Source: Erysipelotrichaceae bacterium (GTDB taxonomy: Bacteria; Bacillota_I; Bacilli_A; Erysipelotrichales; Erysipelotrichaceae). From it: a DNA stretch of 21,506 bases. This document shows, in pieces, positions 6,893 to 21,485 of this stretch. The stretch covers positions 1 to 21,506 of the forward strand of contig JAILBD010000257.1 in the NCBI GenBank assembly GCA_024681275.1. Direction: 5' to 3'. The stretch's first letter is position 1, and the number at the start of each line of letters is the position of its first letter. A program made the position numbers and the translations under genes. Under the pieces are notes generated by a model that searched no databases, was not told where the DNA came from, and worked only from the letters and a program-made list of their open reading frames with translations.

Positions 6893-6909
6893 TTGCGTCT
6901 GTTGTTTTG

Positions 6910-6936
6910 AAGGCAGGAACTGATCCTGCCTTTTTT
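6910..6936 (+). terminator. intrinsic terminator after pepF
   Basis: Nine-base stem AAGGCAGGA paired with TCCTGCCTT, loop ACTGA, followed by T residues. It lies 17 bases after the stop. Confidence 0.93.
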
Positions 6937-6954
6937 GTTGTTCCGGGAAAGACA

Positions 6955-6960
6955 TATAAT
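6955..6960 (+). promoter_or_regulatory. -10 box (TATAAT) for the gtrA-like/glycosyltransferase operon
   Basis: A perfect TATAAT lies 20 bases before the ATG of the GtrA-like gene, just after the preceding terminator. No good -35 hexamer is seen. Confidence 0.6.
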
Positions 6961-6980
6961 AGAAATGTTGAGGTGAGTAT

Positions 6981-7514
6981 ATGTTCAGAAGATTAGATGA
7001 GAAGTTTAAGGATTCCGTTGTATGGCAGTTCATCAAATTCAACCTGATGGGAACGGTCATATTCTGGATACAGGTCATCCTGGCAAATCTTCTTCCTTTC
7101 GTTTTTGATGGTCTGGCGATCAAACTGCCGCCTTTTTTAAGGGGCGTCTTCAGAAGTGAAGTCCTTTTTGATGGACCGAGCAGATATGTGATCGATGGGA
7201 TCGTGACCTGGGGCTATGTTCTGCCTTTCTTTCTCTCAAATCTGATCGCCAATATCGTCGCTTATTTTCTCAGTATGAAAACAGTATTCAGGGGAAAGGG
7301 ACACAGATGGTCGTTCATCGTATATTGCGTCGTTCTGATCTCTCTGATCCTGTTTTCGACATGGCTGCAGGGTCTTATCGTTTCCCTGCTGGCGAGGAGC
7401 AGCTTCGCCGTTCTGGCCAGATCGATCGCAACTATGGCCGCAGGATTGGTCCAGGTCATCGTACTGTTTCCTTTGGAAAAATATGTTCTGTTCAAACAAG
7501 AGGTCACTTTATGA
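6981..7514 (+). CDS. GtrA-like multi-pass membrane protein
   Basis: A 177-residue integral membrane protein with about four hydrophobic helices. GtrA family hallmarks are visible: the opening QFIKFNLMGTVIFW, the central SNLIANIVAYFLSMKTVF, and the ending FPLEKYVLFK. GtrA-like proteins are thought to move undecaprenyl-phosphate-linked sugars across the membrane for glycosylation of envelope polymers. It is longer than the common 120-150 residues because of an insert between helices 1 and 2 (about residues 45-75). The start follows GAGGTGAG at 6970-6977. The stop overlaps the glycosyltransferase start (ATGA), so the two are translationally coupled, supporting a joint role in sugar transfer. Confidence 0.85.
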   Translation: MFRRLDEKFKDSVVWQFIKFNLMGTVIFWIQVILANLLPFVFDGLAIKLPPFLRGVFRSEVLFDGPSRYVIDGIVTWGYVLPFFLSNLIANIVAYFLSMKTVFRGKGHRWSFIVYCVVLISLILFSTWLQGLIVSLLARSSFAVLARSIATMAAGLVQVIVLFPLEKYVLFKQEVTL

Positions 7515-8815
7515 GCAAAGTCAGTATCATCGTACCGGTCTATAATGGGGAAAGATCGCTTTCCAGATGCCTCGATTCTATCCTGGCACAGGACTATAAA
7601 GACATCGAGGTGATCGTCATTGATGATGGCAGCAGGGATGATTCTTTCAGGATCATTTCGGAGTATGCACAGAAAGACAAGAGGATCGTTCCGATCCACA
7701 AGGAGAACAGCGGTGTTTCCGCGACGAGGAACATCGGTCTTTCTCTGGCAAGAGGGGATTATATCCGTTTCGTCGATGTCGATGACTGGATCCCTTTCGA
7801 TTCAGTGAAGCTGATGGTCAGGGCGATGGAGGAAGAGAATACCGACATGGTGGTCGCCGATTTCTATCGCGTCGTTGATGAAAAGATCTCCAAGAAAGGT
7901 TCCATCAAAAAAGAAGCGGTGATCACGGTGGAAGAATATGCCGACAGGATGCTGCTGTCGCCGGCTGATTTCTATTACGGCGCCATCTGGAACAAGCTGT
8001 ACAGGAAGAAGATCATCGATGATCATCAGCTCGCCATGGATGAAAACATTTCCTACAGCGAAGATGCCATCTTCAATCTTCAGTATCTTCTGCATACGGA
8101 CAGGATCTTTGTGCTGAGATCTGCCGTCTACTACTATGTGAAGACGGAAGGATCACTGGTCTTTCAGAACATGAACATTCAGAGCACAGTCAAAATGAAG
8201 ACCGGTGTCATCAGATACTATGACAGTTTTTACAGGCAGATCCTGGATAAGGATGACTACGAGGCGAGAAAGCCCATCATCTATGGTTTTCTGGTCGCCA
8301 TTTCGACTGATGGTTTCACTTTGCCATTGATCGATGACACGAAAAAGCTCGGCGAGGAAAATGGTCCGATCTTCATTGCGGATGACGGGATGGCTTTCGA
8401 ACTGCAGTTCGATCGTCTGAGTGAGACTGTCTTTGCAAGACTGCTTAGGCCGATCGCTCAGAGGGCAGACCTCGATGAAGACGATATCGGCATCCTCTAT
8501 TACCTCTATAAGAAGGGGAAGGAGGCTTCGATGGAAGAGATCTCTGCCGCATGCAGGATCAGTGCTTCATCCTGTGCCTTGTCACTGGCCAGGCTGGTCG
8601 CTTCTGCTCATATCAGGATAGAGAATGTGGACCTCCTTGCGGATGACAAGGTGATGTATGCATACAATCAGGGAGTCCTGGACGCCGCCTTTGATAAGGC
8701 GGAAGAGGACTACAGAGCGCTCTGTTATGAGGGATTGAGCATCGATGAGCTAGCTGCCTACGCTTCAAGCAAGAAGAAGATCTTCCTGAATATGAAAAAG
8801 ACATTGTCCGGCTGA
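7511..8815 (+). CDS. family 2 glycosyltransferase with a C-terminal MarR-like winged-helix domain
   Basis: A 434-residue protein. Residues 1 to about 280 form a GT-A fold family 2 glycosyltransferase: opening SIIVPVYNGERSLSRCLDSI, nucleotide-binding VIVIDDGSRDDS, donor-site ENSGVSATRNIGL, and metal-binding VDVDDW (Asp89, Asp91, Asp92). It would transfer a sugar from a nucleotide sugar at the cytoplasmic face. From about residue 291 the protein changes: a helix (MAFELQFDRLSETVFARLL), then DIGILYYLYKKG, a helix-turn-helix (MEEISAACRISASSCALSLA, residues 341-360), a wing-like stretch and a long helix ending GLSIDELAAY. This order matches MarR-type regulators. The start at 7511 is chosen because it begins the GT fold and overlaps the upstream stop; the frame is open to 7307, but that part lies over the GtrA gene. 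Confidence 0.85.
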   Translation: MSKVSIIVPVYNGERSLSRCLDSILAQDYKDIEVIVIDDGSRDDSFRIISEYAQKDKRIVPIHKENSGVSATRNIGLSLARGDYIRFVDVDDWIPFDSVKLMVRAMEEENTDMVVADFYRVVDEKISKKGSIKKEAVITVEEYADRMLLSPADFYYGAIWNKLYRKKIIDDHQLAMDENISYSEDAIFNLQYLLHTDRIFVLRSAVYYYVKTEGSLVFQNMNIQSTVKMKTGVIRYYDSFYRQILDKDDYEARKPIIYGFLVAISTDGFTLPLIDDTKKLGEENGPIFIADDGMAFELQFDRLSETVFARLLRPIAQRADLDEDDIGILYYLYKKGKEASMEEISAACRISASSCALSLARLVASAHIRIENVDLLADDKVMYAYNQGVLDAAFDKAEEDYRALCYEGLSIDELAAYASSKKKIFLNMKKTLSG

Positions 8816-8851: not shown

Positions 8852-10093
8852 ATGAAGATCAGAAGCCGGGCCTTGATGGTCATGATATTGTCTTTGATGC
8901 TGGTCCTGACGTTTCTGGGTGCACTGACACTGAAGAAGGAGGCACCGGAAAACAGCGGCAAAGAAGGGCAGGAGAACATCGTTCCCGAAACAGTCTCCGT
9001 ACCGGATACGTTCAAAGGCAGGATCGAAGATGAATTCGGCGTTCCTGGCGAAGTGATGGACCTCATCGTTTCGTATATGGATGCATACTATAAGAGCGTT
9101 TTCACATTGGAAGAAGCATCTGTGGATGACCTTTTTGATAATGAGCTGATGAGTGCCATCAGTTCCAGGGCCATGTCTCTGATCATCGATACCAGAAAAA
9201 GATACGATTTCGATTTCAGGATGGACAGCGCTCATTATGATCTCAAGGTCACGAATTTCGAGCAGCAGGGCGATCTTTACATCGTCGACATCCTGGAAGA
9301 TGACTATATGAGTTTCTCTTTCCTTCCGGGTATCGAGTCGCAGTCTTTTGAGATCGAAAACTACTTCAGGATCTCAAAGAAGGATAACGGATGCAGGATC
9401 TCTGATCTGGAGAAAGTCCAGGGCTACTATATGACTTTCTACGATGAAGCGCAAAGCGTCGAGGACGTGGAAAGGATCTATGACTATTACCGTGGACAGC
9501 TGAAGGATATGCACACCTATAATGAAGAAGTCCTGAAGGTCAAGGCAGCAAACAAGCCGTATCTGTCTGTCAAGACATTTGCCAAAGCATATGATCGAAA
9601 TAAGGCGATCGCTTACGCGGATACCTATTATCATGACAGGAATAAGGACTGGTATAATTTCACCGATGAAGGCGGAAACTGCCAGAATTATGCTTCACAA
9701 TGTCTTCTGCAGGGCGGCATCGAGATGGATTTTTCGGGCGATGAACAGTGGAAGTGCTATGTCAATGATCCCGATTATGATCCTTACATCAATGAAGATC
9801 CGACACCTGAGGGCAGGACGAGGTCCTGGGTCAATGTCGGTTATTTCTATAACTATGCCAAGTGGAATGAGGGGAAGGGCCTGGTAGCGGATGTCAATGT
9901 CAATCTTTATTATGCCCAGCCTGGCGATATCATCATGGTAGGCAATAACGGTCTGGTCCATACGGTCATCGTTTCCAAAGTCGTTGATGGTCACATCCTG
10001 GTGCATTCCAACAGCATCGATATGAAGGATTATCCGATCGAGGCTTACACTTATACCGACATCATGCTCATAAAGATACTGGGAAGCAATTAA
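8852..10093 (+). CDS. membrane-anchored or secreted amidase_6-like protein
   Basis: A 413-residue exported protein. A basic N-terminus and hydrophobic helix (MVMILSLMLVLTFLGALTL) form a signal anchor or uncleaved signal peptide with no lipobox. Residues 28 to about 245 contain a helical/beta region without a recognised motif. The C-terminal 165 residues match the putative amidase domain (amidase_6) pattern: YDRNKAIAYADTYYHDRNKDW, then GGNCQNYASQCL with probable nucleophile Cys277, RSWVNVGYFYNYAKW, QPGDIIM, and GLVHTVIVS with probable catalytic His370. This is a papain-like NlpC/CHAP-type active site, so the substrate may be peptidoglycan or an amide outside the cell; this is inferred. The start codon lacks a ribosome binding site (see findings). 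Confidence 0.82.
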   Translation: MKIRSRALMVMILSLMLVLTFLGALTLKKEAPENSGKEGQENIVPETVSVPDTFKGRIEDEFGVPGEVMDLIVSYMDAYYKSVFTLEEASVDDLFDNELMSAISSRAMSLIIDTRKRYDFDFRMDSAHYDLKVTNFEQQGDLYIVDILEDDYMSFSFLPGIESQSFEIENYFRISKKDNGCRISDLEKVQGYYMTFYDEAQSVEDVERIYDYYRGQLKDMHTYNEEVLKVKAANKPYLSVKTFAKAYDRNKAIAYADTYYHDRNKDWYNFTDEGGNCQNYASQCLLQGGIEMDFSGDEQWKCYVNDPDYDPYINEDPTPEGRTRSWVNVGYFYNYAKWNEGKGLVADVNVNLYYAQPGDIIMVGNNGLVHTVIVSKVVDGHILVHSNSIDMKDYPIEAYTYTDIMLIKILGSN

Positions 10094-10110: not shown

Positions 10111-10692
10111 ATGACGAGATTTCATTTTGCAGGAAGATATGATGATGATCCTGAAAGCCTGATCACGCATGAGCATGAGCCCGGATATGTTCCGTTCAGG
10201 GAGATCAAGTCGATGAAAACACTGGGCATCGTCATGAACGGGATCGCTCTGCTGATCGCTGTCATCTGCTTCGGACTTTATTTCTACATCGCAAGAAAGC
10301 CTTTGGAGATCAGCGGTCTCATCATTTTCCTTGCGTCATTGATCCCGCATGAGTTTCTCCATGCCATCTGTTTCAGTGGTGATGTCTATATGTATGAGAA
10401 TCTGAAAAGAGGGATGCTGTTTGTAGCTGGTCCGGGGACTTTCTCCAAGGCGGGTTTCGTCTTCATGTCTATGCTTCCAAATCTGGTATTCGGTTTCATC
10501 CCCTTCGCCCTCTTTCTGATCGATCCGGATCTGACTGTCCTTGGTACGCTGGGAGCGGCAGCGATCTCTTCCGGAGCCGGAGATTATTACAATGTGTTCA
10601 ACGCTTTGACACAGATGCCCAAGGGCTCAAGGACTTATCTGCACGGCACCAGTTCCTACTGGTACATGCCCAAAGACGGAATCGGAAAATGA
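10111..10692 (+). CDS. DUF3267-like membrane metalloprotease-type protein
   Basis: A 193-residue membrane protein with about four hydrophobic segments. The second segment ends in HEFLHA (His80, Glu81, His84), an HExxH zinc motif at a membrane edge. A later GAGDYYN carries Asp158, in the place where this family has a conserved GD-x-x-N. The HExxH motif, the hydrophobic segment ending LPNLVFGFIPFALFLI and the distal Asp are the pattern of DUF3267 putative zincin proteins. No substrate is known. It starts 17 bases after the amidase-like gene with site AAGAAGGAAG and ends directly at a terminator, so it closes this operon. Confidence 0.78.
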   Translation: MTRFHFAGRYDDDPESLITHEHEPGYVPFREIKSMKTLGIVMNGIALLIAVICFGLYFYIARKPLEISGLIIFLASLIPHEFLHAICFSGDVYMYENLKRGMLFVAGPGTFSKAGFVFMSMLPNLVFGFIPFALFLIDPDLTVLGTLGAAAISSGAGDYYNVFNALTQMPKGSRTYLHGTSSYWYMPKDGIGK

Positions 10693-19420: not shown

Positions 19421-20917
19421 GTGAAAAAGAATATTAGAGACCTTCATCTGGAAAAACTGAAAGGCGGTCTTACGCAGTCGCAACAGGATAAGATCGATTC
19501 CTTTTTTGCGGATCTGGCTGAAGCGAGCGATGTCACCCTGCTGGCAAAGAATCTGCTTCATGAGCATTTCGTTGCCGGGTTCGAATACTATCTGAATCAG
19601 GGCAGGAGCATAGACGAAATCTGTGAGATCCTGTGTCTCGATCATCTCGGAGATTTCTATCGAAGCAGAAAGCGTCAGACGTATTCTCTGGATAATGCGG
19701 CGATCGTATATCCGTTGGGGATGCGGTATGGGCAGATGCCGATGTTCAGGCTTTCTTTCGTTCTGAAAGAAGAGATCGAACCGGTCCTGCTGCAGCTGGC
19801 TCTTGATTTCACCCTGAAGCGTTTTCCGACGTTTTCCGCTGTGATCAAGAATGGTTTTTTCTGGCACTATCTGGAGTCGGTCAACAATGTATCGATGATC
19901 GAAGAGGAAAAGGAGATCCCGTGCAAACCGATCTCCATCGTTTTGAGGACATACAGGTCGTTCAGGGTCCTTTATTATCATGACCGTTTGAGCGTCGAAT
20001 ACTTTCATGTGATCACGGACGGAAACGGTGGCCTGGTCTTTCTGAAAACACTTCTGGCTGAGTATCTGCGTCTGAAAGGTGTCGATGTCGCAAAGGAAAA
20101 AGGCGTTCTGGATATCGATGAGGAGATAGATAAGAGGGAACTGGTGAATGAGTTCAAGAATGCGAAAGGGGAGTCTTCTCTTTCGACTTTCATGGATAAG
20201 AAGGCGGTCCAGCTGGATGGAAAGCTCTCGCGTATGAATATCACAAGGATCATCCATTTCAAGATGGATGCGGATCTGCTGCATCAGAAAGCAAAAGAAT
20301 ATGGCGCTTCTGTGACTGCTTATATCTGTGCTCTGATATTCATGGCTGCACGAAGCTGCGTCAGCAGGAAAGGCGTCTTCAACATCCAGATCCCGGTCAA
20401 TATGCGCAAGTTCAACGGTTCCAGGACTTTACGGAATTATTCGATGTACTTCAATGCCAGCATGGAACTGGATAAGCTCCCGGAAAAGAAGGAACTGATC
20501 ACCGATATCGCTAAGCAGATCAGGGAAAAAGGCAGTGAGGAGATGATGAGCCAGATGATGAAGACGACAGGCAAACTGATCGATTCATTGTCCTTCGTTC
20601 CACTCTTCCTGAAGGTCCCGATCATGCAGCATGTCTATGGCTATATGAGCAATTCCATCATCTCCGATACTCTCTCCAACCTCGGAGTGATCGATCTGCC
20701 TGATGGAATGAAAGATGAGGTCGAGAAGGCTTTCTTCCTGCTGGTCCCCGGTTCGCCTAACAGGATCTCGACGACGCTTGCCACAGTCAATGGCACAGCC
20801 GTTTTCACAGTCATCAAAAACAGCGACGATCCGTCTTTTGAGAATGAACTGTACAACTATCTGCAAGACGATGGCGTGCTTAAAGCGATAGAAGGGAGCG
20901 TGGAGTATGAATCCTAA
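19421..20917 (+). CDS. condensation/alcohol-acetyltransferase superfamily protein (CoA-dependent acyltransferase fold)
   Basis: A 498-residue cytosolic protein. The catalytic HxxxDG motif is present as HVITDG (His196 to Gly201) after VEYF, the arrangement in condensation domains and alcohol acetyltransferases, which acylate an alcohol or amine. A later NLGVIDLPD corresponds to the second-lobe segment of this fold. Residues 1-85 form an additional helical stretch (for example SIDEICEILCLDHLGDFYR) that I cannot assign. The GTG start at 19421 is the only upstream start that gives a full N-terminus; the next in-frame ATG is near residue 100. There is no ribosome binding site. The following gene overlaps its 3' end by 11 bases, implying a joint operon with a membrane protein. 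Confidence 0.78.
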   Translation: MKKNIRDLHLEKLKGGLTQSQQDKIDSFFADLAEASDVTLLAKNLLHEHFVAGFEYYLNQGRSIDEICEILCLDHLGDFYRSRKRQTYSLDNAAIVYPLGMRYGQMPMFRLSFVLKEEIEPVLLQLALDFTLKRFPTFSAVIKNGFFWHYLESVNNVSMIEEEKEIPCKPISIVLRTYRSFRVLYYHDRLSVEYFHVITDGNGGLVFLKTLLAEYLRLKGVDVAKEKGVLDIDEEIDKRELVNEFKNAKGESSLSTFMDKKAVQLDGKLSRMNITRIIHFKMDADLLHQKAKEYGASVTAYICALIFMAARSCVSRKGVFNIQIPVNMRKFNGSRTLRNYSMYFNASMELDKLPEKKELITDIAKQIREKGSEEMMSQMMKTTGKLIDSLSFVPLFLKVPIMQHVYGYMSNSIISDTLSNLGVIDLPDGMKDEVEKAFFLLVPGSPNRISTTLATVNGTAVFTVIKNSDDPSFENELYNYLQDDGVLKAIEGSVEYES

Positions 20918-21485
20918 GATCATCTATCCGGTCCCGGAGAGACAGAGCCTTTTTTACAGATATCTGCGCAATATCGTCAGGATCGTTTTCCTTGTTGCGG
21001 CCTTGGTCTGTCTGATCGTCAATTTCCTTGTCAAGGGAAAGACGTGGTCTCTGGTCGTCATTTGGTCTCTGTTTTCCGTATGGAGGCTCGTTTTCTCGCT
21101 GCGTCTTGTCGAATTTTCGATCTTCGCACATGCCAACAAGGTCACGTTCTATCTGGTCGTCCTGCTTTTCCTGATCGACCATTTTCTGATCCCGGGCTGG
21201 GCGGAGACAGTCATTCCGATCGTGCTTTTTGCCGATCTGCTGGTCATGTTCGTGATCTATTTTGCCATCTATGACCGCAAGGAAAGACACCTGATCTCGA
21301 TCGTTCTTCTTGGCGTCCTGAATCTGATCACGATCCCGTATTCTTTACACAGCTGGCCGATCAGCAACTGGATCGCTTTCGCTTTCCAGTGTGCTTCCCT
21401 GCTTCTTTTTGTGACACTGCTGCTGATCAACAGGAAGGAGCTGATCTATGAGATCAGGGCCCGTTTTTCAAGGAATACGAAGTGA
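20907..21485 (+). CDS. multi-pass membrane protein, DUF6320-like
   Basis: A 192-residue protein with about six hydrophobic helices, a basic N-terminal segment before helix 1 and a basic tail (NRKELIYEIRARFSRNTK). The first helix and loop (LIVNFLVKGKTWSLVVIW) and the later LIPGWAETVIPIVLF recall DUF6320 membrane proteins, which from memory often sit beside acyltransferases of the upstream type. Unlike the members I remember, there is no N-terminal zinc ribbon. The family call is therefore tentative and the function unknown. The ATG at 20907 lies inside the acyltransferase 3' end, preceded by AAGGGAGCG, and its stop overlaps a possible next start (TGATG). Confidence 0.7.
   Translation: MNPKIIYPVPERQSLFYRYLRNIVRIVFLVAALVCLIVNFLVKGKTWSLVVIWSLFSVWRLVFSLRLVEFSIFAHANKVTFYLVVLLFLIDHFLIPGWAETVIPIVLFADLLVMFVIYFAIYDRKERHLISIVLLGVLNLITIPYSLHSWPISNWIAFAFQCASLLLFVTLLLINRKELIYEIRARFSRNTK

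What the first reader, a model, noticed from the sequence alone, without database searches (positions are those of the whole stretch)
7511..8815. Glycosyltransferase fused to a MarR-like winged-helix domain
One uninterrupted frame of 434 codons joins a complete family 2 glycosyltransferase (residues 1 to about 280, with VDVDDW intact) to a C-terminal 145-residue segment. That segment reads in order as a MarR regulator: leading helix, DIGILYYLYKKG, recognition helix region SASSCALSLARLV, wing, and a long dimerisation-type helix ending GLSIDELAAYA. I know of no standard family with this architecture. It could be a sugar-transfer enzyme that also binds DNA, a regulator controlled by envelope-precursor supply, or a winged helix reused as a protein-interaction module. 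The gene is coupled by ATGA overlap to a GtrA-like membrane protein.
Basis: partly seen in the sequence, partly recalled or inferred. Interest (0 to 1): 0.75.

Follow-up and report, generated by a model that had tools for sequence, protein, structure and literature searches.

The report
Sugar-transfer enzyme with regulator-like tail
A bacterium carries a sugar-transferring enzyme whose tail has the fold of a gene regulator; the join is real and shared by many relatives, but the tail looks partly stripped of its DNA-gripping surface, so it more likely holds the enzyme together or docks it than switches genes.

The parts
7511..8815 (+). gene for the GT2-MarR fusion protein, 434 aa (stop included)
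7511..8170 (+). GT-A family 2 glycosyltransferase core, residues 1-220; D39, D89, D91, D92, E184, D185 invariant in 86 aligned sequences
   Evidence: Pfam PF00535 at 5-169, 6.2e-38; invariant columns; D185 aligns with TarS D178 (alignment, residue counted by hand; D178 named)
8171..8356 (+). mostly helical stretch and linker after the GT core (residues 221-282); conserved TKKLGEE at 277-283
   Evidence: mean entropy of 220-283 1.35 bits against 1.02 for 1-220
8357..8812 (+). MarR-fold winged-helix domain, residues 283-434
8564..8602 (+). a4, position of the recognition helix, residues 352-364 (one basic residue)
8612..8665 (+). wing hairpin, residues 368-385, with K380
6981..7514 (+). GtrA-like membrane protein, 177 aa, overlaps the fusion gene by ATGA
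   Evidence: PF04138 5.3e-6, 27.1 bits against cut-off 26.1; adjacent in 17 of 32 relatives

Best explanation
The protein is a working cytosolic GT-A family 2 glycosyltransferase that acts on a cell-envelope acceptor. Its C-terminal oligomerisation or docking module is a domain recruited from a MarR regulator. Inferred mechanism: D39 and the D89/D91 motif hold nucleotide-sugar and metal; D185 is the catalytic base; the MarR-type helices a1, a5 and a6 pair two subunits, or dock the enzyme on a partner (in the close clade perhaps the co-translated GtrA-like membrane protein), in the place where TarS carries an unrelated trimerisation module. The DNA-binding face is no longer under the selection seen in stand-alone MarR proteins. 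Shown here: fold (predicted), fusion, conservation of catalytic residues, weakening of the DNA face. Inferred: activity, acceptor, dimer, docking.
For: GT catalytic residues invariant in 86 aligned sequences. D185 aligns with TarS D178, the base proposed in PMC5156392 (passages read; alignment). Those passages describe TarS as catalytic domain with C-terminal helical bundle, linker, then a separate trimerisation domain: the same layout with another module. Basic residues (K+R), 32 fusions against 39 stand-alone MarR proteins from the same bacterial family: recognition helix 1.34 against 2.62, wing 2.56 against 5.28. A wing column with R or K in 39 of 39 controls has R or K in 2 of 32 fusions. 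Wing D-x-[RK] in 3 of 32 against 34 of 39. Pairwise identity in the recognition helix is at or below the domain mean in fusions (0.33 against 0.37 in the close 14; 0.25 against 0.25 in the distant 18; 0.24 against 0.25 over all 32) but above it in stand-alone proteins (0.30 against 0.22 over all 39; 0.75 against 0.46 and 0.42 against 0.31 in two groups). The two domains' pairwise identities correlate (r 0.78), as expected if inherited together. pTM 0.86 for the whole chain hints at fixed domain packing.
Against: No dimer model, coordinates or inter-domain error map were available, so oligomerisation and packing are inferred. The loss of basic residues is not confined to the DNA face: a1 (2.62 against 4.59) and a5 (1.56 against 3.18) also fall, a2 and a6 rise, and only the sum outside the DNA face is similar (11.78 against 13.1, p 0.15). 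With glutamate allowed, [DE]-x-[RK] is in 14 of 32 fusion wings against 36 of 39. In the wider set of 86, 24 wings keep D-x-[RK], the window's protein has it too, and 10 of 14 close relatives keep a lysine at the column of K380. In that wider set the recognition helix (2.23 bits) is about as variable as a1, a5 and a6 (2.32, 2.15, 2.26), not more. Net charge of a4 does not differ from the controls (0.97 against 0.97, p 0.78). gtrA was not found beside 14 of 32, and a 15th could not be judged, so a GtrA dock cannot be general.
Confidence: 0.5

Rival explanations
1. Bifunctional enzyme and transcription regulator: the MarR domain still binds an operator, and nucleotide-sugar or acceptor supply alters the binding.
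For: Full MarR fold with wing; D-x-[RK] kept in 24 of 86 wings; lysine at the K380 column in 10 of 14 close relatives. Family 2 glycosyltransferases with a regulatory second job exist: GmaR (PMC9638930, passages read) and EpsE (PMC3000366, abstract read).
Against: Recognition helix and wing have half the basic residues of the controls; the recognition helix is not preferentially conserved; no palindrome shared by the 17 regions examined upstream of gtrA, apart from the near-copies L099 and L126.
Confidence: 0.17
2. Allosteric sensor: the MarR ligand pocket was kept to gate the glycosyltransferase with a small molecule, without DNA binding.
For: The whole MarR unit a1 to a6 is kept, not only the winged helix; among the solved MarR matches are ligand-bound ones.
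Against: No pocket residues were tested; the C-terminal domain diverges fast (mean pairwise identity 0.25 against 0.58 for the GT part), which fits one shared ligand poorly.
Confidence: 0.15
3. Partner recruitment: the domain binds a resident MarR regulator or another regulator, as GmaR binds MogR, and titrates it.
For: Each of 30 genomes with the fusion has 3 to 14 PF12802 matches, stand-alone and longer frames together, and stand-alone proteins match the fusion-tail profile (best 6.2e-14). In one locus (L123, genome G118) a MarR-like gene ends 3 bases before the fusion frame. GmaR precedent.
Against: A profile of stand-alone MarR proteins finds a MarR-like neighbour in only 1 of 31 loci. Flagellin, GmaR's target, has a match in 0 of 32 genomes.
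Confidence: 0.1
4. Sequencing or assembly error joining two genes.
For: None found.
Against: 32 of 195 genomes with a near full-length match; 31 of 31 loci with both domains in one frame.
Confidence: 0.01

Closest known systems
TarS / TarP wall teichoic acid glycosyltransferases (PDB 5tze, 6h1j)
   Same: GT-A family 2 core (4.1e-24 and 2.8e-18); D185 = TarS D178; helical stretch after the core, separate C-terminal module (TarS: PMC5156392, passages read)
   Different: the TarS module is a trimerisation domain of stacked carbohydrate-binding modules; here it is a MarR fold
MarR family regulators (PDB 2fbh, 3cjn, 3nrv)
   Different: joined to an enzyme; basic residues of recognition helix and wing halved; wing D-x-R/K mostly missing
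GmaR of Listeria monocytogenes (GT2 with antirepressor part)
   Same: family 2 glycosyltransferase with a second, regulator-related part (passages; a PDB chain named GmaR matches the GT part at 5.6e-8)
   Different: the second part of GmaR is TPR, linker and antirepressor domains, not a winged helix; its target flagellin has a match in 0 of 32 genomes with the fusion
ROK family repressors (MarR-type winged helix + sugar kinase fold)
   Same: a MarR-type winged helix joined to a sugar-handling fold (recalled; several PF12802 frames of about 390 residues have that length)
   Different: winged helix is N-terminal and the partner is a kinase fold, not a glycosyltransferase (recalled)
EpsE of Bacillus subtilis
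   Same: family 2 glycosyltransferase; NCBIfam EpsE model matches residues 3-261 with 69.9 bits; bifunctional (abstract)
   Different: far below the model cut-off of 450 bits; the model is 265 positions long and does not reach the C-terminal domain

Membership tests
Glycosyltransferase family 2 (Pfam PF00535) | match over curated cut-off | tested here: met
   130.8 bits against 23.3
Glycosyltransferase family 2 (Pfam PF00535) | DXD-type metal site and acidic base intact | tested here: met
   D89, D91, D92, E184, D185 invariant in 86 sequences; D185 = TarS D178
Glycosyltransferase family 2 (Pfam PF00535) | enzyme activity | not testable with these tools
   needs purified protein
MarR family | MarR fold a1-a6 with winged helix | tested here: met
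   predicted model matches solved MarR proteins
MarR family | sequence match to MarR profiles | tested here: inconclusive
   window protein 17.5 bits whole, 19.7 bits C-terminal part, Pfam cut-off 27; 13 of 20 members reach E 0.01 with PF12802; the G189 fusion is over the cut-off with 31 bits; profile of stand-alone MarR proteins hits 28 of 31 fusions at 1e-4
MarR family | basic wing motif and recognition helix for DNA | tested here: inconclusive
   K+R halved against 39 controls; D-x-[RK] 3 of 32 against 34 of 39; wing R/K column 2 of 32 against 39 of 39; but D-x-[RK] in 24 of 86 in the wider set, and the window protein has it
MarR family | homodimer binding DNA | not testable with these tools
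   no multimer prediction or assay
GtrA-linked polyprenyl-phosphate sugar systems | GtrA membrane protein next to a GT2 | tested here: met
   the window and 17 of 32 relatives
GtrA-linked polyprenyl-phosphate sugar systems | GT2 of DPMS/GtrB type with its own membrane helices (recalled) | tested here: inconclusive
   best solved sequence matches are GalT1, 3bcv, chondroitin synthase and TarS; DPMS only 4.8e-4; no membrane-helix prediction was run
EpsE equivalog (NF053739) | score over curated cut-off | tested here: not met
   69.9 bits against 450

The most novel reading that the evidence does not exclude
In the gtrA-linked clade the protein is a one-piece sensor-regulator: a glycosyltransferase whose MarR domain still contacts DNA or a pocket ligand, so that envelope-sugar supply is read directly by the enzyme that uses it.
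Probability: 0.18. Interest if true: 0.8.

Novelty: new variant of a known kind. Interest (0 to 1): 0.5.

Why it matters
It is a conserved case of a transcription-factor fold built into a sugar-transferring enzyme, with the DNA-binding face weakened while the fold persists: a natural experiment in how a regulator domain may become an enzyme part. TarS, of the same general layout, carries another C-terminal module, so the slot seems able to take a MarR domain. It also warns that a database MarR hit in such a protein need not mean a regulator.

Tried and rejected
Homology search with the C-terminal profile against proteins of about its own length gave nothing at E 0.001 among 7511 candidates (E-values for 5.8 billion sequences); the same profile did ring against solved structures and whole genomes. 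A search with residues 286-434 alone found 3 proteins among 580 candidates, all of the same kind; it missed most known relatives, so fusions of the domain to other partners are neither shown nor excluded. A flagellar role (GmaR- or EpsE-like) was rejected: flagellin match in 0 of 32 genomes, which may be incomplete. A shared operator upstream of gtrA was sought in the window and 16 loci: 11 of 17 regions had a perfect inverted repeat with arms of 7 or more, none shared except by the near-copies L099 and L126; several are followed by a T run like terminators (by eye). The frame starts used there were mechanical, so in L103 at least the wrong stretch was examined. The phylum sample held the fusion in 2 of 392 genomes, both already in the family sample. 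The genome-contig scan found two full-length relatives (L001, L002) among 27 loci. Foldseek with the whole model listed glycosyltransferases in its 50 shown rows, so the C-terminal part was modelled alone. A paper search for a wing DXR motif gave no usable passage, so the motif rests on my own alignment. Net charge of a4 gave no difference.

Choices that could bias counts: A1 holds P0001 and 85 of the 120 listed hits. A2 holds 20 of the 22 C-terminal segments printed (P0020 and P0104 left out). The controls come from 105 ORFs of 120-225 aa in loci; the iterated profile kept 39 of them and P0122, whose copy from L128 was dropped, which leaves 39. The two stand-alone groups were picked by me. 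Rows are related, so p-values are descriptive.

Full report
Observation. The window has one 434-codon frame at 7511-8815. Its first 220 residues are a family 2 glycosyltransferase (PF00535, 6.2e-38). Residues 283-434 form a separate domain. The ATGA overlap with the GtrA-like gene is there. The AlphaFold2 model of the whole chain has pLDDT 90.0 and pTM 0.86; the C-terminal part alone has pLDDT 90.6 and pTM 0.82.

The fusion is conserved. Of the 120 listed homologues, 112 align over at least 95% of the window protein, with identities down to 42%; 14 of the 120 carry a precomputed winged-helix Pfam domain (PF12802 in 10, PF12840 in 3, PF13412 in 1; the name of PF12840 is recalled). In 195 genomes of G001's family, 32 have a near full-length match at 1.5e-107 or better; the next best matches are ordinary glycosyltransferases from 1.9e-54. 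One of the 32 (G178) is cut by its contig end; I fetched the other 31, and 31 of 31 keep both domains in one frame. In 392 genomes drawn from the phylum the fusion was found in 2, both in the family sample. Source names among the 120 hits, where an organism is given, are Erysipelotrichaceae (9 rows) or Firmicutes (1 row); the two full-length genome-contig loci are named Solobacterium sp. and an uncultured Firmicutes bacterium. So I take the window to be from an Erysipelotrichaceae bacterium, by inference.

Neighbourhood. A match to the window's GtrA lies directly upstream in 16 of 31 loci and in the cut 32nd (G178: PF04138 27.3 bits), so in 17 of 32. In 14 none was found; in L127 only 161 bases lie upstream, so it cannot be judged. 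On a tree of the window protein and 31 relatives the gtrA label needs two changes and sits in a clade of 14 (with the window) and a clade of 3. The fusion is in all rows, so it does not depend on gtrA. In 5 close loci (L097, L098, L100, L102, L107) the genes downstream match the window's through GroES and GroEL: ordinary synteny.

Is the DNA face kept? I aligned 32 fusion tails (window and 31 loci) with 39 stand-alone MarR proteins from the same bacterial family. K+R in the recognition helix: 1.34 against 2.62; in the wing: 2.56 against 5.28. At one wing column stand-alone proteins have R or K in 39 of 39, fusions in 2 of 32. Wing D-x-[RK]: 3 of 32 against 34 of 39; [DE]-x-[RK]: 14 of 32 against 36 of 39. 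Within fusions the recognition helix is not more alike than the domain as a whole; in stand-alone proteins it is. Against this: a1 and a5 lose basic residues too, a2 and a6 gain, and only the sum outside the DNA face is similar; 24 of 86 in the wider set keep D-x-[RK], and the entropy of a4 there is ordinary; net a4 charge is equal; at the column of K380, 10 of 14 close relatives have lysine (0 of 18 distant ones, one arginine). So DNA binding is weakened, not excluded, above all not in the window's own clade.

Mechanism. The GT residues are invariant and D185 aligns with TarS D178, so I infer an active enzyme. TarS has the same order of core, helical bundle, linker and C-terminal oligomerisation module (passages of PMC5156392). 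MarR domains dimerise through a1, a5 and a6 (recalled). I therefore read the tail as a recruited oligomerisation or docking module. Dimer, partner and sugar are untested.

Known or new. GmaR and EpsE show that family 2 glycosyltransferases can have second jobs (passages of PMC9638930; abstract of PMC3000366). GmaR's second part is of another build, and flagellin has a match in 0 of 32 genomes with the fusion. Paper searches for this architecture gave 0, 1 (unrelated, judged by its listing), 0, 0 and 0 papers; the library holds open-licence papers only. I file it as a new variant of a known kind.

Noticed in passing
L127 1950-4076 (-), genome G064: A 708-residue frame adds an alpha/beta hydrolase (PF00561, 3.2e-17) in front of the GT2-MarR fusion; seen in 1 of 31 loci, assembly not checked.
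   Followed up: partly
L123 7880-8317 (+), genome G118: A 145-residue MarR-like gene (MarR_2 19.7 bits, under the cut-off of 27) ends 3 bases before the fusion frame; the only such neighbour in 31 loci.
   Followed up: partly
window 6900-6980: A hairpin with a T run is followed closely by TATAAT and the gtrA start: the promoter seems to overlap the terminator of the gene before (by eye).
   Followed up: no
window 8852-10093 and 10111-10692: Next genes: an Amidase_6 protein (PF12671, 1.9e-25) and a DUF3267 putative zincin peptidase (2.2e-17).
   Followed up: no
window 19421-20917 and 20907-21485: A 498-residue protein without Pfam match at 0.001 overlaps a DUF6320 protein (3.1e-13); both are found downstream in L097, L098 and L107.
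   Followed up: no
L054, L055, L056 (genomes G179, G167, G186), downstream of the fusion: A family 3 glycoside hydrolase (PF00933 and PF01915) follows the fusion in three loci, two of which also have gtrA upstream.
   Followed up: partly
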